A stretch of DNA of 64,000 bases from an uncultured Alphaproteobacteria bacterium (GCA_958431225.1 OY288107.1:434001-498000), one strand, 5' to 3'; shown: positions 10,915 to 43,160, numbered from the stretch's first letter. The notes: generated by a model not told the origin, from the sequence alone. Program-made: numbers and translations.

Positions 10915-12453
10915 TTATATAAAATCAAATGGCGGTGGGTCGGGCATTTTTTCGGAGAGACCCTGATTTTTTTGGTATTTGTTAAGACGTTCTTTAGCAT
11001 CTTGCAATTCTTTTTTAGCATTTACTAATTCAGATTCTAGCTCAGTAGTATCTTCGCTCATTGCCTCCACTCGCATTAATCTCCATTCAGCAACTTCTAC
11101 TGCAACCCATTTATCTACAGGTTGTCCTGACCAAGATTTTTTTTCTGAATCTTCTTCAGGTATAACAAAAAACTTATCCCCATGTCCTCTCTCCTCATAT
11201 TCTCGACTAGCATCCATTTTAGATGATAGGCGCTGATTTTTTGGATAATAGCATGATCGGAAAAAAACCTTTGGCTCAAAATCATCAACAAAATTGAAAT
11301 TTTTTTCTCCAATATCCATAAACATAAAAAGCGGTAAAATTCTTCTTACTGGAGTAAATGGTATTAATGTGTCGAGAGGCACAGATGGAATTTTATTATC
11401 GTTTTTGAGTAAAAAAGTCTTTTCTAGAAACACCACTCTGTGAAAAGTAACGCTCTCAAAATCAATATCATTTTCATAAAAAAATGAATGCTCGATGACC
11501 ATTTCATAAAAAACTGTATTCTTAATTTGTGCGAACGCAAAAAAACAAGAACGAATTGTGCTATTTGGTATCCTGCCAGAAGCAATTGTATGTTTTGAAG
11601 CATCAGTATATCTCATGCCAAATGCCGTATTATTAAAATAAGATTTATTAAAACTAATGCGCTCTATTATTTTACTTTTAAATTCTAGATAACCAAAATC
11701 TAGATTACTAAAATCTAAGATACCATTAACAATCTGACCATCATCGTCAAACCGACCACCAAAACGCCCAGAATTGATAAGTCGACTTTGGAGCAGTTTG
11801 TCTCGCTCATCTAAAGGCAAGCCAGTAAGGTAATCCAAGGCGGCTTGCACATCTTGGCGGCTTTCCTTCGCTAATTTAGAAGAAAGGGGTTTGCCGTTCT
11901 TGCCACGTCGAATTCTCGTTTTTTCATGGAAAAAATCATAAATGATATTTGCAATAATAGGCTTTTGCTCCTCATTGGCATTATTAAATAAATCTTTTAA
12001 AACATGAATCCCAGCACTACGTGTGGATGTGTCTTCCTTTGCCAACAACTCAACGCCACGCCCCAATTTTTCATTAAAACTTTGATCTATTTGCACCTGC
12101 ACTTGATCTGAAAATGTTTTCTGTCTTTGGGTAGCAATCAACAAGCCAATAATCACACCGACACCACCGGAAGCATAAATTAAATTTCGTAAATTTTCAT
12201 GATTATCCTCTAAATTTGAGTTGTGCCACCATACTGAAGACGTATACACAACCAAAACCAACATACCACCTAAGCCAACAAGGAGGATAGAAATCAAAAT
12301 ATTGTTAAGGGTGCGCCATTGCCATAGCCATTGCCATAGCCTTTGCACAGTAGAACGTATCCACAAGGGTCTCCGCCTAATCCACATCCACAAACGCCAT
12401 ACAGCAGACCCATACCTTATTTTGTTGCGTTTTTTTTCTACTGATTTTTTCAT
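10915..12453 (-). CDS. Membrane-anchored protein with pentapeptide-like repeats, function unknown
   Basis: A 512-residue protein from AT-rich DNA unlike its core neighbours. The basic, Trp-rich N-terminus leads to two predicted membrane helices ([19 protein letters not shown] and a Gly/Ile-rich one near [15 protein letters not shown]). A helical cytoplasmic region follows ([27 protein letters not shown]). Beta-type repeats then resemble pentapeptide repeats ([37 protein letters not shown]). The C-terminus is a predicted coiled coil ([20 protein letters not shown]). It lies 19 bp downstream of the methyltransferase-HNH gene in the same orientation, so the two may form one module. Confidence 0.7.
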
Positions 12454-12472: not shown

Positions 12473-13714
12473 CTACCGACCAAACGTTATTTGTTGTGAT
12501 AACAGATTATCACGCTTGGCAATCTTGCTTCTAAGATATTCCATCGGTCTGTTGCCCTTGATCATGTTGCAATTACCGCACAGCAACTGATAATTCTCCC
12601 TTGTGTCGCTTCCCCCCTTGCTTACAGGGATGATATGGTCAATGTGAAAATCAACAATTCGCATCTCGTTTTCGCAAGCGTTGCACTTGCCACCTTGCTC
12701 ATCAAACATGGCTTGTTTCAACTCTGGCTTGCTAGGCGATTCGATTGGTAAATCTGTCCGTTCTGGAAAGTCAAACCTATGCACAAAATCCTTAAACATA
12801 CCCGCATCATCGCTAAGCCTTTCTACTAACAAATGCGCGGCTTGTTCTTCAATGTCAATGCCAATCCATTTACGATTGAGCTGTTGTGAGGCGACGCAAG
12901 TTGTGGCGCATCCGCAGAAGGGGTCAAGGACAACATCGCCCTCATTGCTGGAAGCCTTGATGATGCGCGTTAGCAAGTCTAGGGGTTTTTGGGTGGGGTA
13001 GCCTGTGCGCTCTTTCTTTAATCTTCCTACTGGTGAAAAATCAGGCCACCACGATTCTGGCATCTTGCCTCTGTGTAAATACTCATCCCTAACTTTAGAA
13101 GACAATGATACATCTGCGCCAAAATGAGACTGCCCTTTATTTGTGTTTAGTTTTTTATAAGGAATCCTTACTGCATCAGCATTAAAAGTCCATTCATCAG
13201 ATTTTGTATAGAAAAGAATAATGTCGTGTTTTTTAGGAAAACTTTTCACACTACCGCTTGGTGCAGTATAACACCAAACAATCTCATTCCTAAAATTATC
13301 CCGCCCAAAAACATCATCCATCACGATTTTGAGATAGTGGCTGGCGGTCGGGTCGCAATGCAGATAGATGCTTCCCGCTTCCTTCAACACGCGGCGCATT
13401 TCTTTAATGCGCTGTGCCATATAAAGCACGTAAGCCATCATGGGCTTGCCGTGGATGCCTTCTATACTTTTGATGAAATCAACAAGGCAGGGATGGGTGA
13501 TGAATAACGTTTCAAGTAGCTCCTCATCAATATCATCCCATGACCACATATCCTTGAACGAAGTTCCCGCCGCCTTACTCCCGATAGGGGCGGAATAGGT
13601 GCGCTTGCTGTTGAAGGGCGGGTCAAGGTATATTAGGTCAACGCTCTCGGAATCGAATCGGTGTAAAAAGTGGATATTGTCGCCTGTGTATAGATAATTG
13701 CTCGCTTTATTCAT
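12473..13714 (-). CDS. DNA methyltransferase fused to a C-terminal HNH nuclease domain
   Basis: A 413-residue fusion. The N-terminal part is an amino-methyltransferase of the beta order: catalytic motif DLIYLDPPFNSKRTY near residues 28-42, then the SAM-binding motif DVVLDPFCGCATTCVAS near 260. The last 70 residues are an HNH domain: CNAC, HIDHIIPVSKGGSDTRENYQL, CGNC, starting at residue 344. N6-adenine or N4-cytosine methylation is likely; specificity is unknown. It could modify and cut, or the HNH part could only bind DNA. Its lower GC and the unlinked core neighbours suggest horizontal transfer. Confidence 0.88.
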   Translation of the reverse strand: MNKASNYLYTGDNIHFLHRFDSESVDLIYLDPPFNSKRTYSAPIGSKAAGTSFKDMWSWDDIDEELLETLFITHPCLVDFIKSIEGIHGKPMMAYVLYMAQRIKEMRRVLKEAGSIYLHCDPTASHYLKIVMDDVFGRDNFRNEIVWCYTAPSGSVKSFPKKHDIILFYTKSDEWTFNADAVRIPYKKLNTNKGQSHFGADVSLSSKVRDEYLHRGKMPESWWPDFSPVGRLKKERTGYPTQKPLDLLTRIIKASSNEGDVVLDPFCGCATTCVASQQLNRKWIGIDIEEQAAHLLVERLSDDAGMFKDFVHRFDFPERTDLPIESPSKPELKQAMFDEQGGKCNACENEMRIVDFHIDHIIPVSKGGSDTRENYQLLCGNCNMIKGNRPMEYLRSKIAKRDNLLSQQITFGR

Positions 13715-36348: not shown

Positions 36349-36924
36349 TCATTTCTTCCTAAGTGGCAACCATGCTAATTCCGTGTTTCCAGTATGTGCT
36401 TTATCCCAAACAAACCACGCATATGCTGTAGTTCCGCTTCCTTTTCTTACCGCACCCTTGGGATAAAATGTAATACGTTCGCTAAATACCCAAATCCTTG
36501 CCGGCGGGGTGATATTAAAAATGTTGGTCTGTCGCCTACTGCTCTCAAGGAATGCTAAACGAAGAAGCAGTGCGACTTTCTTTGTGGTGTTAGCAATTCC
36601 AGACAGAACAAATTTTTCAGCACTATGGAAAGGAGGGTTTGTTATTACGTTGTCAAATTTCATGTTCGCAGTAGTGAAATCTACCCCGCTTTCCCCATAG
36701 CCCCTGTCGTATAAGTCGGAACTATAAACAGAGTATCCGTGACTTTCTATCACTTCAGACATTGACCCATCCCCACAAGCACACTCCCAGACTTTCCCTT
36801 CAAAACTTTCCTGTTCTAAGAGAGCTTGAGTTGCCCACTCTGGCGTTGGATAAAAATCATCACCAGCCAAATCGGCAATACGCTTAGTTGTGGGTTGGGG
36901 GGCGAGCAAGAGCTGTTCGTGCAT
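36349..36924 (-). CDS. Small phage-type DNA methyltransferase
   Basis: A 191-residue class I SAM-dependent methyltransferase. Marks are DDFYPTPEWATQALLE, the SAM loop VWECACGDGSMSEVI, and the catalytic DNVITNPPFHSAEKFV. The small size with no target-recognition domain is typical of phage and mobile-element enzymes. N6-adenine methylation is likely from NPPF. Base composition is lower in GC than the core. Confidence 0.8.
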   Translation of the reverse strand: MHEQLLLAPQPTTKRIADLAGDDFYPTPEWATQALLEQESFEGKVWECACGDGSMSEVIESHGYSVYSSDLYDRGYGESGVDFTTANMKFDNVITNPPFHSAEKFVLSGIANTTKKVALLLRLAFLESSRRQTNIFNITPPARIWVFSERITFYPKGAVRKGSGTTAYAWFVWDKAHTGNTELAWLPLRKK

Positions 36925-37080: not shown

Positions 37081-37629
37081 TTAGCTGTTATTTTGCGTAT
37101 TTTCTTTCGCTAATTTCATACATTCGATTCGCGCACCATTCACTAGTAATGGATGGACACCCCACAGGTTGTGTTTAGTATTCAATGGTGGCTTGTGTTC
37201 TTTTATGAATTCTTTCTCTGCTTCCCCCGCATCAGATTTCATGATGCAAAAAGTGTAAGTGCAATATTTTTGTATCCAATGTGAAAGTTCTTTTTCTTTC
37301 TCAAATCTATATTGCTTTGCTTCGTCGCTAGAGTAGTAGGGTTTTAGTTCTAGCTGCTTGTACAACATAGCACCAATCGCCCGTCGAAAAGCGCTCGTCT
37401 TTGAATCTGTGCCAGCGAAATGTGTTTTCAATCTGCCCCTTAAACCCTTTTTAGATTTAGTCTGCCCAATATACAAAAGATTTTTTTCATTCCGCAAATC
37501 CGCTTGCCAATCTTTAGGGGCAACGCTGACATCGGGTAAAAAGATGGCGTATATGCCAGCATCGCGAGGAACGGCGTCCTCACCACTCCACCGCAACGGC
37601 TCTTTGTCAACAAGTGTGATTTCTGTCAT
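37081..37629 (-). CDS. GIY-YIG nuclease-like protein, copy 1 of a tandem pair
   Basis: A 182-residue protein with the GIY-YIG elements DAGIYAIFLPDV, LLYIGQTKSKKGLRGRLKTH and EKEFIKEHKPPLNTKHN. The start MTEITLVDKEP lies 8 bp after the stop of copy 2. ATG at 37641 overlapping that stop is also possible. It is paralogous to the upstream gene over its full length. The metal-binding Glu appears in the last motif. Confidence 0.75.
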   Translation of the reverse strand: MTEITLVDKEPLRWSGEDAVPRDAGIYAIFLPDVSVAPKDWQADLRNEKNLLYIGQTKSKKGLRGRLKTHFAGTDSKTSAFRRAIGAMLYKQLELKPYYSSDEAKQYRFEKEKELSHWIQKYCTYTFCIMKSDAGEAEKEFIKEHKPPLNTKHNLWGVHPLLVNGARIECMKLAKENTQNNS

Positions 37630-37637
37630 ACCTAACC

Positions 37638-38249
37638 TCATATTTGGATTATTTTTGCCAATTTTCTGCATTCGCTTCGTGCGCTTTTTAGCAATGGATG
37701 CGTGTATGGGTTGTCAGTGTCATTCAATGGCGGTTTGAAATGTCCTATGAGTCCTGCCTCTTTTTCCTCTATATATTCGGCTTCCATAGGGCAAAAAGTG
37801 AAGGCGCAATTTTCCTGTATCCAATTTGACAGCGGTTCTTCTCGCTGGAAACTATACCTGCCGTTTTTTTTGTAGTCGGCGGTGCGATATATGAGTTCTA
37901 GGTCTAGGCCTGTGTGCAATAACATGGCGCCGACCGATCTCCGAAAAGTGCTATTTGATGAATCGCCACTCGTGCCATGTTCTCTGGGTTTGCCATTCAA
38001 GCCAGATATGTCGCCAGTAAAATGCTTGCTCAATCTGCTCTTCAAACCATCTTCAGCTTTTCCAATATACAAAAGATTGCGTTCATTCTGCAAATCCCCT
38101 TTCCAATCTCTCTGCAAATCCGCTTGCCAAGTGTCAGGGGCTGCGTTGATATCGGGCAGGAAGATGGCGTATATGCCAGCCTCGCGGGGAACAGCGTCCG
38201 CACTGCCCCACTGCAACGGTTCTTCATCAAATAGCGATTTTTCTATCAT
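37638..38249 (-). CDS. GIY-YIG nuclease-like protein, copy 2 of a tandem pair
   Basis: A 203-residue paralogue of the downstream gene. Elements are EAGIYAIFLPDINAAPDTWQ, LLYIGKAEDGLKSRLSKHF, AFTFCPMEAEYIEEKEA and HFKPPLNDTDNPYTHPLL. It carries an extra segment (HFTGDISGLNGKPREHGTSG). The pair is transcribed towards the small methyltransferase gene and abuts tRNA-Leu. Confidence 0.75.
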   Translation of the reverse strand: MIEKSLFDEEPLQWGSADAVPREAGIYAIFLPDINAAPDTWQADLQRDWKGDLQNERNLLYIGKAEDGLKSRLSKHFTGDISGLNGKPREHGTSGDSSNSTFRRSVGAMLLHTGLDLELIYRTADYKKNGRYSFQREEPLSNWIQENCAFTFCPMEAEYIEEKEAGLIGHFKPPLNDTDNPYTHPLLKSARSECRKLAKIIQI

Positions 38250-38280
38250 GTCTACGCCTCCCCAAAAAAAGTAAAAAAAA

Positions 38281-38369
38281 TGGTGCGGCTGAGAAGACTC
38301 GAACTTCCACGGGCTGTTAAGCCCACAGCGACCTCAACGCTGCGCGTCTACCAGTTCCGCCACAGCCGC
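38281..38369 (-). tRNA. tRNA-Leu (anticodon GAG)
   Basis: Read on the minus strand it folds into a full type II tRNA. The acceptor stem is GCGGCTG/CAGCCGC with encoded CCA. The anticodon stem CAGCG/CGCTG holds the loop TTGAGGT, so the anticodon is GAG. There is a long variable arm (TGGGCTTAACAGCCC) and a GTTCGAG T-loop. It is the intact member of a duplicated block. Confidence 0.95.
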
Positions 38370-38604
38370 ACTTTATGACGCTCATTCTTGCGTCTTTGGT
38401 ATAACTATGCGATAACAGATAAATTGATTTAACGCAAGCCTGAAACTTATGCCTTCGCCTGTTGAACCATATTCTTTGCCTTTCTCGCGCCCTGCTTGCT
38501 TTCGTGGGTTTGGCGGGGTGACGGTTTGGGTTGGGGGGGTGCCTATTGGTTATGATGATGCGGTGGCGGCGATGGAAGCACGAGTTGCTGGGATTGCGGC
38601 GGCG
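38282..38604 (+). repeat. Left copy of duplicated tRNA-Leu/lipB block
   Basis: Matches 42284-42566. It contains the complete tRNA, the 79-bp spacer (nearly identical in both copies) and the first part of lipB. The copies differ by scattered substitutions within lipB and by a 37-bp deletion in the other tRNA. Confidence 0.85.
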
Positions 38605-38715: not shown

Positions 38716-38744
38716 TTGACAATTTGAATTTTTTTAATTACACT
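38716..38744 (+). promoter_or_regulatory. Putative sigma-70 promoter of the Z1 operon
   Basis: TTGACA at 38716-38721 and TACACT at 38739-38744 are separated by 17 bp, a near-ideal promoter. The operon start is 54-66 bp downstream. Confidence 0.6.
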
Positions 38745-38809
38745 AGTGCTTTATCAGTTTCTTATTCTACGTATACTTGTCCATGTAACTAGAAAAAATG
38801 GGGATGGCG

Positions 38810-40663
38810 ATGACAGATTATAAAGCAATGGTTGGTAATGTTGGTGATAATCAATACGAAAAGCGTGTTGATTATCTTAAGGGTGCGGGTTTAGAAACCA
38901 CACAAATTGAAAGCACCGTCAAACAAATTGATTTAACAGCGAAGAGCAAATCCTTTGTCATTTTTGGCGAGCCACAAAGCGGCAAGACCGAGATGATGAT
39001 CGCTTTGAATGCTTATTTGATGGATAAAGGATATGCTGTAGTAATAAACCTAATGACTGATAATGTTGCTTTATTGAATCAGAGTATGACTAGATTTAAA
39101 GCTGCGGATTTAAGTCCCGCACCAAAACAATTTTCTGAGTTACCGGATGATGCTAGTGAAATACGAAAGCAACCAAAATGGATTATTTTTTCAAAAAAGA
39201 ACGCTCGAGACTTAGAAAAGCTTATAGAGCAACTTCGATTAGTTGAAAATGTTGTTATTATTGACGATGAAGCGGACTACGCTACTCCAAACGCCAAAAT
39301 TAATCGGGATGAAAAAACAAAAATAAATGAATTAATTGGCAAGCTTTTAGAAAAAAATAATAGCCACTATATTGGCGTTACTGCAACTCCGGCTCGACTG
39401 GATTTAAATAACACTTTTGACAATGTTGCAAAAGATTGGGTTAGATTTGATCCATACTCTGGCTATGTTGGGCAAGATTTTTTCTTCCCTGAAAATTCGG
39501 AAATGCTGCAATATAGAAGCCATTTTTTTGATCCTGACAAAAACGACTCAAACACGAAATTAGAACCAGCTATTTTCCATTTTTTGTGTGGCGTTGCGGA
39601 ACAACACCTTACCAGAAATAATAAAGAAAACTTTTCCATGATCATACATACTAGTGGTAAAATTGGTGAACACAAAGAGGATATTGAAAATGTCTCAAAG
39701 GTTGTTAGGAAATTGCAAGATCCCAACAATGCAAATTTTAATGCATCCTGTCGTAAAATATTGGAAATAGCTGAGAAAAAATATGATGGCGATGCAGAAG
39801 AAATTTTGGAATTTATATTGAATAATATCTGGAGAAAACAAATTGTTGAAGTTAATACTGAAGGGAAAAAGCAGCGGAAAACGCAAGATATAGATGATGC
39901 ATTGAAACCTACATGCTTATTTTCATTCGTAATAGGTGGAAATATTATATCTCGAGGCATAACATTCGATAATTTATTATCTATGTATTTTACTAGAACA
40001 GTCAAAGGTAAATTCACTCAAGATACATATATTCAGCGCGCTAGGATGTTTGGACACAGAGATAAATACAAGTGTGATTTTCAACTTTGGGCTCCCGAGC
40101 CTCTAATGCAAGAGTGGGCTAAATGCTTTTTATTTCACAAATTAGCAATCCAATCCATTATAAAAAATAATAACGTACCAACATGGATATCTGACAAAAC
40201 CGTATTCCCTACATCAAGCGCTTCAATCGATAGATCATCTGTCGACTTTGAAGGCGGTGAAATGTCATGGGCAGTTTTTAAATTTGATGAAAATCGCCAT
40301 GAAAGGTGTATGGTATCTGAAAAATCTACTGAGGAAATTTTGAAGGAAATGAAGCAAACTTTCAAGGCACATGAATTTCCTGAACACATCTTCGAATATT
40401 TACTTACAGAAGCTCGTGCTGATTCGAATAATATTTGTTTTCATAAAGCCTCTGAATTTGGCGGTTCTAGCTCAAAATATTCTGATGAAGAGGTGAAATC
40501 TATACAAAGAAAGAAGGGTATTTTTTCTACTAACGAATATAAACGAGGAAACAGGCCTGATGCATTGCACCACTTAAAGATATTCTATAATCATCACGGC
40601 GACGCAAGATTACTCTATAAGGTGCAAGGCAACAAAATAAGATTCATACAAAGAAATCAATGA
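38810..40663 (+). CDS. Z1-domain superfamily 2 helicase-like ATPase, restriction-associated
   Basis: A 617-residue protein (621 from an upstream ATG at 38798; 38810 is preferred for its GGGGA site). ATPase motifs counted from 38798 are Walker A FGEPQSGKTEMM at 56-67, Walker B VIIDDEADYATPN at 153-165 and GVTATPAR at 193-200. The Z1 part has GGNIISRGITFDNL and TYIQRARMFGHR. Z1 proteins are known from MORC/MutL-like restriction systems together with methyltransferases and nucleases. It overlaps the next gene by 4 bp. The gene is AT-rich, unlike the flanking core genes. Confidence 0.88.
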   Translation: MTDYKAMVGNVGDNQYEKRVDYLKGAGLETTQIESTVKQIDLTAKSKSFVIFGEPQSGKTEMMIALNAYLMDKGYAVVINLMTDNVALLNQSMTRFKAADLSPAPKQFSELPDDASEIRKQPKWIIFSKKNARDLEKLIEQLRLVENVVIIDDEADYATPNAKINRDEKTKINELIGKLLEKNNSHYIGVTATPARLDLNNTFDNVAKDWVRFDPYSGYVGQDFFFPENSEMLQYRSHFFDPDKNDSNTKLEPAIFHFLCGVAEQHLTRNNKENFSMIIHTSGKIGEHKEDIENVSKVVRKLQDPNNANFNASCRKILEIAEKKYDGDAEEILEFILNNIWRKQIVEVNTEGKKQRKTQDIDDALKPTCLFSFVIGGNIISRGITFDNLLSMYFTRTVKGKFTQDTYIQRARMFGHRDKYKCDFQLWAPEPLMQEWAKCFLFHKLAIQSIIKNNNVPTWISDKTVFPTSSASIDRSSVDFEGGEMSWAVFKFDENRHERCMVSEKSTEEILKEMKQTFKAHEFPEHIFEYLLTEARADSNNICFHKASEFGGSSSKYSDEEVKSIQRKKGIFSTNEYKRGNRPDALHHLKIFYNHHGDARLLYKVQGNKIRFIQRNQ

Positions 40664-41109
40664 TTAGTGATGCTTACAAATATCATGGTGCGGCGCTAGC
40701 ATTTTTGATTGATAGCCTGAATAAGCCGCTAATGATTGAAAAAGCCTATGATGACAAGCATGGCTTTTTTCTGATTTGTGGTCAGTGTCCGCTTTATCTA
40801 AAATTTTCAAGAACACGAAGAGGGTATTGGAGTTTTTCATTTAGCGATGAACAACAATTTTTATGCTCTGAACTTGCCGAAAAATACGGCGATTGCATTG
40901 TTGGACTGATTTGTGGAGCCGACGGCATAGTTGGTATTAAACACGAACAAATGAGGCAGTTAATCCATTTTTCGCTAGAAAAATCTGAGAATGTGTCTGT
41001 AAAGAGAAAATTAAGCGGGACATATTTGGTCAGCGGTAGTAAAGGTAAACTTAAGCACCAACTAAATCGCAATTCACTACCCACAGCAATCGGAGATTAT
41101 ATCAAATGA
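40660..41109 (+). CDS. Unknown 149-aa protein between the Z1 helicase and the methyltransferase
   Basis: Not recognised. It overlaps both neighbours by 4 bp (ATGA at 40660 and at 41106), so all three are translationally coupled. The predicted structure mixes strands and helices: FFLICGQCPLYLKFSRTRRG, YWSFSFSDEQQF, YGDCIVGLICGADGIVGIKH. The C-terminus is basic (KRKLSGTYLVSGSKGKLKHQ). I see no firm nuclease motif. By position it could be the cleaving or target-reading subunit, since no other nuclease is encoded in the operon. Confidence 0.7.
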   Translation: MISDAYKYHGAALAFLIDSLNKPLMIEKAYDDKHGFFLICGQCPLYLKFSRTRRGYWSFSFSDEQQFLCSELAEKYGDCIVGLICGADGIVGIKHEQMRQLIHFSLEKSENVSVKRKLSGTYLVSGSKGKLKHQLNRNSLPTAIGDYIK

Positions 41110-42278
41110 AGTATGTTCACCCCTTTCCAGCTAGAATGGCGCCTGAAATCATTTTAGAAGAAATTAAGAATCTACCCAAAAAGTCTGTTGTTCTTGACCC
41201 TATGTGTGGTTCAGGAATGACTTTAAGCCATTGCTCACAACACGGATTGAAATCCATTGGTTGTGATATTGATCCACTGGCTCAGCTTATTTCTAGTGTT
41301 GCATCAACCTCCATAGTTGTTGACGAAGTATGGAAGGAATATGAAAATTTAATGAAATTTATAAAATCAACGCCCAAAAACCAAATTTCACTAGATTGGA
41401 TTGACAATGACGATGAAACATCAAATTTCATAAATTATTGGTTCGCCCCAAAACAGCAAAAGCAGTTGCGAAAATTTGCGGCGTATTTTTCCGACTCGTC
41501 AATTGATTCGTCAGATAGGCACATTAAACTCCTTAAAGTGGCACTCAGTAGGTTAATCATTACAAGCAAGCCAAAAATTTCATTGGCAAGAGATACCGCA
41601 CATAGTCGCCCCCATAAAGTCATTACAGAAAATGACTTTGATATAATGGCGCATTATGAAAAATCAGTTCAGCACGTCATTACGTCATTGCAAAGAATTG
41701 ATCCAAAAACCGATGCTGAAATCCATCTTTCTTGCGCTAAAAATATGGTGTCTATTCCGGATAATACAATCGATGCAATCATCACATCGCCACCTTATTT
41801 GAATGCAATTGATTATTTAAGAGGGCATAAATTTTCTTTGGTTTGGTTTGGGTATAAAATATCAGAATTAAGAGCAATTCGGACAGATTCTGCTGGTTCA
41901 GCAAAATCATATAACTATGACGACGTGGAATTTAGCGCATTACTCAATTCAATTGGTTTAAAAGAAATCGACCATCAAACAAGTAGGCTATTAAGCAGAT
42001 ATTTAGTGGATCTTAGTGGAATTATCTCAGAAATGAAAAGAGTTCTGAAAAAAAACAAGCCTGCTTATGTTGTCATTGGAAATTCAAACATTAAAGGCAA
42101 CCATATACAGAACAACAAAATTCTACAATTTGCCGCAAAACGAATTGGTTTTACAGTCAAAGACGAAAAAACACGGGAAATACCCGATAGTAAAAGATAT
42201 TTACCAATTCAAGTTTCAAATAACAATGCACTGGCTTCACGTATGCGGACGGAGCATATAATTCAGTTGCAAGGATAA
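41106..42278 (+). CDS. DNA amino-methyltransferase of the Z1 operon
   Basis: A 390-residue methyltransferase. The N-terminal YVHPFPARMAPEI and SAM loop VVLDPMCGSGMTLSH (residues 28-42) precede the catalytic TSPPYLNAIDYLRGHK (SPPY at 228-231). SPPY is common in N4-cytosine enzymes, but adenine cannot be excluded. A conserved-looking helical insert between the motifs may read the target. It is the last gene of the coupled operon and probably protects host sites. Confidence 0.88.
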   Translation: MKYVHPFPARMAPEIILEEIKNLPKKSVVLDPMCGSGMTLSHCSQHGLKSIGCDIDPLAQLISSVASTSIVVDEVWKEYENLMKFIKSTPKNQISLDWIDNDDETSNFINYWFAPKQQKQLRKFAAYFSDSSIDSSDRHIKLLKVALSRLIITSKPKISLARDTAHSRPHKVITENDFDIMAHYEKSVQHVITSLQRIDPKTDAEIHLSCAKNMVSIPDNTIDAIITSPPYLNAIDYLRGHKFSLVWFGYKISELRAIRTDSAGSAKSYNYDDVEFSALLNSIGLKEIDHQTSRLLSRYLVDLSGIISEMKRVLKKNKPAYVVIGNSNIKGNHIQNNKILQFAAKRIGFTVKDEKTREIPDSKRYLPIQVSNNNALASRMRTEHIIQLQG

Positions 42279-42283
42279 AAAAA

Positions 42284-42334
42284 GGTGCGGATGAGAAGAC
42301 TCGAACTTCCACGAGTTATTAAGCCCACAGCCGC
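42284..42334 (-). pseudogene. Degenerate tRNA-Leu remnant
   Basis: Matches both ends of the intact tRNA-Leu at 38281-38369 but lacks the 37 bp between two CACAG repeats. That removes the D-arm and anticodon arm. The CCA end and acceptor stem also carry changes. It cannot fold as a tRNA. Confidence 0.85.
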
Positions 42335-42566
42335 ACTTTATGACGCTCATTCTTGCGTCTTTGGTATAACTATGCGATAACAGATAAACTGATTTAACGC
42401 AAGCCTGAAACTTATGTCTTCGCCTGTTGAACCATATTCTTTGCCTTTCTCGCGCCCTGCTTGCTTCCGCGGCTTTGGTGGGGTGGCGGTTTGGGTTGGG
42501 GTTGTGCCTATTGGTTATGATGATGCGGTGGCGGCGATGGAGGCGCGGGTTGCTGGGATTGCGGCG
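42284..42566 (+). repeat. Right copy of duplicated tRNA-Leu/lipB block
   Basis: Counterpart of 38282-38604. It holds the tRNA remnant, the same spacer (one substitution noticed) and the 5' end of the intact lipB. Confidence 0.85.
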
Positions 42567-43160
42567 GGTGCGGCGCGCGAGGCTCTGTGGTTTTTGGAAC
42601 ATGCGCCGGTCTATACTGGCGGCAGTTCGGTCGGCAGTTCGGGGGGGGCGGCGGATATTCGGTTGGATGCGGGCGCGGTACCTGTGCGTCATGTTGGGCG
42701 TGGGGGGCAATGGACTTACCATGCGCCGGGGCAGAGAATTATCTATATTATGCTTAATTTGCGTGAGCGCGGGCAGGATGTGCGCGCATTTATTCGCGGC
42801 ATTGAGGCATGGGTGATTGCCGCATTAAGCGAATTTGGCATCGCCGCAAGCCCACGTCAGGGCGCGCCCGGCGTCTGGTTAGCGCGCGCGGATGCAGTGC
42901 CGAATCAAAAAATAGCGGCGATTGGCGTGCGCCTAACCCGCTGGGTGAGCTGGCACGGCGTTGCTATCAATGTGGATGCAAAAATGTTGCAAGGATTTCA
43001 AAAAATCACCCCCTGCGGCATCGCCGACACCGAAACCGTTGCTATCAATTCGGAAATAAAAACCCCTGCGGAAACGCCAAAACTAATGCACCAATTAGAC
43101 ACCGCCCTAGAAACCCATTTCCCCACAACCCTCGGCAACTATATGCGCTTTAGTGGATGA
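42414..43160 (+). CDS. lipB: Octanoyl-[acyl-carrier-protein]:protein octanoyltransferase
   Basis: Moves octanoyl groups from acyl carrier protein to lipoyl domains, the first step of lipoate synthesis. Conserved parts are LWFLEHAPVYTGG, VPVRHVGRGGQWTYHAPGQ, GVWLARADAVPNQKIAAIGV and RWVSWHGVAINVD. It is 248 residues. The catalytic Cys is in ITPCGIADTE. The intact gene sits right after the tRNA remnant; its promoter must lie in the duplicated spacer or in the Z1 operon. Confidence 0.93.
   Translation: MSSPVEPYSLPFSRPACFRGFGGVAVWVGVVPIGYDDAVAAMEARVAGIAAGAAREALWFLEHAPVYTGGSSVGSSGGAADIRLDAGAVPVRHVGRGGQWTYHAPGQRIIYIMLNLRERGQDVRAFIRGIEAWVIAALSEFGIAASPRQGAPGVWLARADAVPNQKIAAIGVRLTRWVSWHGVAINVDAKMLQGFQKITPCGIADTETVAINSEIKTPAETPKLMHQLDTALETHFPTTLGNYMRFSG

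What the first reader, a model, noticed from the sequence alone, without database searches (positions are those of the whole stretch)
38716..42278. Compact three-gene Z1 helicase / unknown protein / methyltransferase operon
A near-ideal promoter is followed by three genes joined by two 4-bp ATGA overlaps. Seen: clear Walker and Z1 motifs in gene 1, SAM and SPPY motifs in gene 3, and nothing recognisable in the 149-aa middle gene. Known: Z1 helicases belong to restriction-type systems with a MORC/MutL-like ATPase, a PD-(D/E)XK nuclease, an AIPR protein and a methyltransferase. Here the ATPase, the nuclease and AIPR are all missing. Inference: this is either a minimal, possibly undescribed, anti-phage system or a cut-down remnant. 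The intact frames and tight coupling argue for a working unit.
Basis: partly seen in the sequence, partly recalled or inferred. Interest (0 to 1): 0.75.

Follow-up and report, generated by a model that had tools for sequence, protein, structure and literature searches.

The report
Z1-motor restriction-modification trio
These three genes form a small, widely shared bacterial unit (a DNA motor, a nuclease-shaped protein of an unannotated family and a protective DNA methylase) that most likely destroys unmarked foreign DNA using ATP, although it is not known whether the nuclease-shaped protein really cuts.

Summary
The three genes and both 4-bp ATGA overlaps are real. The trio is neither a local oddity nor a MORC-Z1 remnant. 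About 80 genome loci from many phyla carry full-length relatives of the Z1 gene. Of 51 with enough flank, 40 also have the middle gene and 36 have the whole trio; 24 of those trios lack a GHKL ATPase and a BsaWI-like nuclease. Z1 and middle-gene distances correlate at r=0.79. Gene 1 matches the NgoAVII N-protein along its length, and its C-terminal model best matches the CglI H-subunit C-domain. That points to CglI-like ATP-dependent restriction-modification. The 149-aa protein has no Pfam, NCBIfam or PADLOC family. AlphaFold2 (pLDDT 95) gives a PD-(D/E)XK nuclease-type fold closest to I-Ssp6803I and Hjc, but the acidic catalytic residues are largely missing (one lysine is invariant; usually N and Y replace D and E). 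It sits where CglI has its PLD-B3 R-subunit. Whether it cuts or only binds DNA is open. The trio is low-GC and was inserted between tRNA-Leu(GAG) and lipB with a ~300-bp duplication; four congeners show the uninterrupted site. Verdict: a new variant of a known kind; the middle protein is the interesting part.

The parts
38810..40663 (+). Gene 1: SF2 (DEAD-like) + Z1 helicase-like ATPase, 617 aa from the likely start (the longest ORF starts at 38798, 621 aa)
   Evidence: PF10593 91 bits; PADLOC Helicase_II 1e-47; full-length hhalign match to the NgoAVII N-protein, prob 100, E 2.4e-42; start inferred from relatives
40256..40630 (+). C-terminal domain of gene 1 (residues ~487-611), like the CglI H-subunit C-domain
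   Evidence: AF2 model of residues 434-621, pLDDT 82.5; best structural match 6f1s Z 5.3, 106 aligned, next row Z 3.0
40660..41109 (+). Gene 2: 149-aa PD-(D/E)XK-fold protein of an unannotated family; invariant Lys48 at 40801-40803
   Evidence: No Pfam/NCBIfam/PADLOC family; AF2 pLDDT 95.2; I-Ssp6803I Z 10.8, Hjc Z 9.4-10.1; conservation
41106..42278 (+). Gene 3: N6/N4 DNA methyltransferase, 390 aa, probably N4-cytosine; SAM motif DPMCGSG 41196-41216, catalytic TSPPY 41784-41798
   Evidence: PF01555; PADLOC MTase_II 1.8e-27; only PDB matches are DNA cytosine-N4 methyltransferases 8s9n/8s9m
38716..38744 (+). Candidate promoter TTGACA-17-TACACT
   Evidence: 10 of 12 matches, but the region is not enriched in such sites over shuffles
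38269..38602 (.). Left copy of the duplicated segment: tRNA-Leu, spacer and lipB 5' end
   Evidence: D1 243 nt at 95% and D5 61 nt at 89%; alignment
42271..42567 (.). Right copy of the duplicated segment; its tRNA copy has lost 37 nt and is not recognised as a tRNA
38281..38369 (-). Intact tRNA-Leu(GAG) at the insertion site
   Evidence: ARAGORN; Rfam RF00005 50.6 bits
38449..38610 (+). Truncated 5' copy of lipB left by the insertion (matches LipB residues 1-54, 91%)
42414..43160 (+). Intact lipB, the other border of the insertion
   Evidence: NCBIfam and Pfam lipoyl transferase matches; orthologue sits directly beside tRNA-Leu(GAG) in congeners

Best explanation
The trio is a compact ATP-dependent restriction-modification system of the CglI/NgoAVII working type, acquired by lateral transfer. 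Gene 3 methylates a short DNA motif (probably on cytosine N4) and so marks self. Gene 1 is the H/N-type motor: an SF2+Z1 ATPase with a CglI-like C-terminal domain that moves along unmarked DNA. Gene 2 is its dedicated small PD-(D/E)XK-fold partner and occupies the slot that the PLD-B3 R-subunit has in CglI. The motor/gene-2 complex engages unmethylated DNA and, after ATP-driven movement, disables it, most simply by gene 2 nicking each strand when two complexes meet. Shown here: the genes, their homology, the fold of gene 2, conservation, coupling, co-variation and recent insertion. Inferred: ATP-driven movement, self-marking and restriction. Uncertain: that gene 2 is the catalyst, about 50% given the rest.
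For: Gene 1 aligns along its length with the NgoAVII N-protein, and its C-domain's only outstanding structural match is the CglI H-subunit C-domain. CglI/NgoAVII are M + R + Z1 ATPase systems with coupled ATPase and nuclease (PMC4267653) that are proposed to translocate on DNA (PMC5737866). Of 51 loci with flanks, 40 have gene 2, 46 a methylase, 36 both, and 24 the trio without GHKL or BsaWI. The larger neighbours scanned beside close-relative trios are non-nuclease or unrecognised. Z1-gene 2 coupling: 29 with 4-bp overlaps, 25 more within 30 bp. Distance correlation Z1-gene 2 is 0.79 (0 of 2000 permutations); with the same methylase family all three genes correlate (0.82/0.53/0.47). A separate profile search for gene 2 found it only beside Z1. 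Gene 2 fold.
Against: The canonical E-D-(D/E)xK site is absent in nearly all gene-2 members: the D position is mostly Asn, the E/D position mostly Tyr, and only one of 63 comes near. Loci with a BsaWI-type restriction enzyme still keep gene 2, so there it is not the only nuclease. A supported 11-member clade keeps Z1 and the methylase but has no gene 2. Across unrelated methylase subfamilies the methylase hardly tracks Z1 (r=0.14), whereas one would expect matched specificity in an R-M system. Marine SAR11/SAR116 relatives show Z1 + gene 2 with no adjacent methylase. No activity was measured.
Confidence: 0.65

Rival explanations
1. Gene 2 is a catalytically dead PD-(D/E)XK-fold DNA-binding subunit. 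It gives the Z1 motor its grip on DNA or its target, and cleavage comes from another nuclease (BsaWI-type, HNH or a host enzyme) or does not occur, the motor itself blocking or stripping phage DNA.
For: Missing acidic catalytic residues but strongly conserved K48, R53, W57, R116 and Y122. Gene 2 is kept beside BsaWI-type nucleases. L084 has an HNH gene next to Z1 and gene 2.
Against: Where the genes next to a bare trio were scanned, no other nuclease was found, yet such trios are the commonest arrangement. PD-(D/E)XK active sites are known to vary (general knowledge).
Confidence: 0.4
2. The trio is a cut-down remnant of a MORC/GHKL-Z1 system.
For: 13 of 51 related loci carry a GHKL ATPase near Z1, including L021 in the window's own clade.
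Against: Loci with GHKL are scattered over the Z1 tree, and the bare trio is the commonest state (24 of 51). Frames are intact and the genes co-vary.
Confidence: 0.07
3. An orphan methylase plus a modification-dependent (Type IV-like) Z1 + gene 2 pair that attacks foreign-methylated DNA rather than unmethylated DNA.
For: Marine relatives have Z1 and divergent gene 2 with no adjacent methylase (L084, L086, L087, L090). Methylases of unrelated subfamilies are exchanged between loci.
Against: 46 of 51 loci have a methylase close by, and within the window's clade the methylase co-varies with Z1 at r=0.88.
Confidence: 0.1

Closest known systems
CglI / NgoAVII ATP-dependent restriction-modification (PMC4267653, PMC5737866)
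   Same: Three-gene logic: methylase + small partner + Z1 ATPase. The motor matches the NgoAVII N-protein over its full length, and its C-domain resembles that of H.CglI.
   Different: The R-subunit is a 149-aa PD-(D/E)XK-fold protein, not a PLD-B3 protein, and no similarity to R.NgoAVII was found. The methylase is of the N6/N4 type, not C5-cytosine. Gene order differs.
MORC-Z1 operons, third type of Iyer et al. 2008 (PMC2292703)
   Same: Z1 helicase with a DTxxQxxRxFG motif (here DTYIQRARMFG), methylase, and a companion protein of restriction-enzyme fold.
   Different: No GHKL ATPase or AIPR here. The companion described there has E-D-ExK motifs; gene 2 does not.
MZA anti-phage system (MzaC)
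   Same: Shares a Z1 domain; weak match to MzaC.
   Different: 37.7 bits against a cut-off of 1500; no GHKL ATPase or AIPR in the window.
Archaeal Hjc / I-Ssp6803I / RecU PD-(D/E)XK proteins
   Same: Fold of gene 2 over its whole length (Z 10.8 and 9.4-10.1).
   Different: About 7-16% sequence identity, and the metal-binding acidic residues are not conserved. No sign of a junction-resolving or homing role.

Membership tests
Z1-domain SF2 helicase (PF10593) | Z1 profile match above the curated cut-off, with Walker and DEAD-type motifs | tested here: met
   91.4 bits against 25; PQSGKT and DDEAD invariant in 75 of 75 aligned sequences
CglI/NgoAVII-type R-M | H/N subunit: DEAD + Z1 + C-domain | tested here: met
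   hhalign prob 100, E 2.4e-42 with the NgoAVII N-protein; C-domain 6f1s Z 5.3, next 3.0
CglI/NgoAVII-type R-M | R subunit with PLD nuclease and B3-like DNA-binding domain | tested here: not met
   No PLD gene in the operon; gene 2 unrelated to the R-proteins (hhalign prob 0.3) and of another fold. Hence 'works like', not 'is a member of'.
CglI/NgoAVII-type R-M | Companion DNA methyltransferase | tested here: met
   N6_N4_Mtase PF01555; different class from M.CglI, which is C5
CglI/NgoAVII-type R-M | ATP-dependent cleavage of unmethylated DNA | not testable with these tools
   Needs biochemistry.
PD-(D/E)XK superfamily (fold) | alpha-beta-beta-beta-alpha-beta nuclease core | tested here: met
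   AF2 pLDDT 95.2, pTM 0.90; most of the best structural rows are PD-(D/E)XK or related nucleases, top Z 10.8 over 121 residues; Foldseek Hjc E 1.8e-3, prob 1.00
Active canonical PD-(D/E)XK nuclease | Conserved E...D...(D/E)xK metal site | tested here: not met
   Columns 4/40/46/48 read mostly E-N-Y-K; one of 63 members comes near the canonical set. Positions assigned from secondary structure, not from coordinates.
MORC-Z1 / MZA system | GHKL (MORC/MutL-like) ATPase in the operon | tested here: not met
   No HATPase_c_3 match in the window; own-genome matches lie 0.15 Mb or more away
MORC-Z1 / MZA system | AIPR protein | tested here: not met
   The only own-genome AIPR match is at 1.29 Mb, outside the window

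The most novel reading that the evidence does not exclude
Gene 2 founds a family of small stand-alone PD-(D/E)XK-fold nucleases with a rebuilt active site (acid-N-Y-x-K in place of E-D-E-x-K), which cut only when coupled to a Z1 DNA motor. The trio would then be a distinct, widespread ATP-dependent restriction type that current defence catalogues do not recognise as a system.
Probability: 0.3. Interest if true: 0.7.

Novelty: new variant of a known kind. Interest (0 to 1): 0.5.

Why it matters
Z1 ATPases are common in defence operons, but biochemistry was found here only for the CglI/NgoAVII kind. Here the same motor is paired, from Proteobacteria to Actinobacteria and candidate phyla, with a small nuclease-fold protein that Pfam, NCBIfam and PADLOC do not know. 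That gives a defined, testable partner for the motor and a clear question: does a PD-(D/E)XK fold without its acidic residues cut, or does it only load and steer the motor? It would also let annotation tools recognise this unit.

Tried and rejected
Gene 2 as a free-standing B3-like recognition domain (my first guess from CglI): rejected by hhalign against the NgoAVII-type R-proteins (prob 0.3) and by the fold. A nuclease hidden in the C-terminus of gene 1: not supported; the model matches the CglI H C-domain, and nothing else stood out. The two GIY-YIG proteins upstream (37081-38249) as the missing nuclease: rejected as a part, since they lie beyond the tRNA border, on the other strand, and no GIY-YIG match appeared among the neighbours of related trios that were scanned. 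Searches that led nowhere: PDB sequence search with gene 2, phage records, single-protein viral scan, the 2018 H.CglI paper (not held), alignment-based viral scan with gene 2. PF14390 in the own genome gave nothing, but its control rang nowhere either, so that test is empty.

Full report
Observation. Relatives start at query residue 5, so the true start of gene 1 is probably 38810. The promoter is moderate, and such sites are not above chance for the region. The trio has 34-38% GC against 50-55% to its right, which suggests recent acquisition.

Insertion. The trio lies between two copies of the tRNA-Leu(GAG)/lipB region: 243 nt at 95% and 61 nt at 89%. The left copy holds the intact tRNA and a truncated lipB; the right copy holds a tRNA with a 37-nt deletion and the intact lipB. 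In congeners G001, G002, G004 and G006, and in G007 of the same family, tRNA-Leu(GAG) sits directly beside lipB; in congener G005 the arrangement looks the same but the tRNA is cut by the contig end. None of the six congeners searched has the Z1 gene. This resembles the insertion with long target duplication described for restriction-modification genes; papers using that term were found, but I did not read them in detail. No integrase gene was seen between the repeats.

Relatives. A scan of genome contigs gave 80 loci with full-length Z1 relatives at 37-56% identity, in Proteobacteria, Bacteroidota, Acidobacteriota, Actinomycetota, Planctomycetota, several candidate phyla and Nanoarchaeota. 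Most have a gene-2 homologue next to Z1. Of 51 dereplicated loci with adequate flanks, 40 have gene 2, 46 a methylase and 36 both; 13 have a GHKL ATPase and 5 a BsaWI-like nuclease; 24 are the trio without either. The seed motifs came from the window and one relative, so these fractions describe this Z1 subfamily only. Scans that started from gene 2 alone had a low yield (3 of 385 alphaproteobacterial genomes including the own one, 1 of 398 in the phylum), but every hit was beside Z1. On plasmids the only gene-2 match, in Calothrix, is also beside Z1. Three viral-contig Z1 relatives all have gene 2, and one, L118, has the exact trio with both overlaps.

Unity of the trio. Where a homologue is present, gene 2 overlaps Z1 by 4 bp in 29 loci and lies within 30 bp in 25 more. 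Distances of Z1 and gene 2 correlate at 0.79 (0 of 2000 permutations reach it); Z1 and methylase at 0.14 over all methylases. When only methylases of the window's family are used (31 loci), the values for Z1-gene 2, Z1-methylase and gene 2-methylase are 0.82, 0.53 and 0.47, none reached in 2000 permutations. So Z1 and gene 2 are the fixed core, and the methylase is inherited with them in some lineages and replaced in others. On the Z1 tree, absence of gene 2 is concentrated in one fully supported clade of 11; one of these (L065) has an HNH gene in the place of gene 2. These correlations do not correct for organismal phylogeny, but the tree mixes phyla, so vertical inheritance alone is an unlikely cause.

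Gene 1. It matches the NgoAVII N-protein over 529 aligned columns. An AlphaFold2 model of residues 434-621 (pLDDT 82.5; [quoted passage not shown] next 3.0). Z 5.3 is modest by itself; the agreement with the independent sequence match is what makes it persuasive. No nuclease turned up among the matches of this domain.

Gene 2. With 56 sequences AlphaFold2 gives pLDDT 95.2 and pTM 0.90. VIA-align ranks I-Ssp6803I first (Z 10.8, rmsd 3.0, 121 aligned), then archaeal Hjc (9.4-10.1), with RecU, SPARDA nuclease domains and PvuII lower; Foldseek's best is Hjc at E 1.8e-3. The first helix, strand 43-49 with invariant K48 and helix 63-76 fit the PD-(D/E)XK core. By position the metal-site residues would be 4 (E/D in 56 of 63), 40 (N in 44 of 63; D or E in 13) and 46 (Y in 42 of 63), so the canonical set is broken. 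K48, W57, G10, G89 and G126 are invariant; R53, P56, F59, C85, R116 and Y122 nearly so. Conserved basic and aromatic residues without a full set of conserved acids fit DNA binding, and a non-canonical active site cannot be excluded.

Mechanism. The best reading is that gene 3 marks self DNA, the Z1 motor with gene 2 engages unmarked DNA, and ATP-driven movement leads to its destruction, as in CglI, where R and H form a complex and cleavage needs ATP hydrolysis and communication along DNA (PMC4267653, PMC5737866). Membership in the CglI family proper fails on the R-subunit, so I say 'works like'. Whether gene 2 cuts is about even: for it, no other nuclease was recognised beside the bare trios scanned; against it, the broken metal site, its retention beside BsaWI-type nucleases, and its absence from a clade that keeps Z1 and methylase.

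Known versus new. MORC-Z1 operons (PMC2292703) and MZA are more distant. In the open-access library searched I found no description of the Z1 + 149-aa + methylase unit; a paper on the H-subunit that could mention relatives was not held, and REBASE was not available, so prior notice cannot be excluded.

Noticed in passing
window 12473-13714 (-): An N6_N4 DNA methyltransferase fused to an HNH nuclease domain, followed by a 512-aa ORF (10915-12453) without any Pfam match: a possible second restriction-modification-like locus in the window.
   Followed up: partly
window 37081-38249 (-): Two tandem paralogues with GIY_YIG_2 nuclease domains (78% DNA identity over 144 nt), in a low-GC stretch beside the tRNA-Leu; a 191-aa gene at 36349-36924 with a weak methyltransferase match lies next to them.
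   Followed up: partly
whole genome G000 (2.33 Mb): Sixteen PF01555 DNA-methylase matches, about 15 genes, in a 2.3-Mb genome; apparently rich in DNA methylases.
   Followed up: no
L084, L086, L087, L090, L003/L088: Marine SAR11/SAR116-type variants carry gene 2 divergently from Z1 with no methylase next to them; L084 has an HNH gene downstream of Z1. A possible methylase-free, modification-dependent version.
   Followed up: partly
L064, L079, L034, L094, L093: Operons combining methylase, a BsaWI-family restriction enzyme, Z1 and gene 2 (gene 2 only weakly detected in L034): a Type II restriction enzyme joined to a Z1 motor.
   Followed up: partly
L118 5953-9508: A viral-collection contig carries the whole trio in the same order with both 4-bp overlaps, so the unit may travel on phages or proviruses.
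   Followed up: partly
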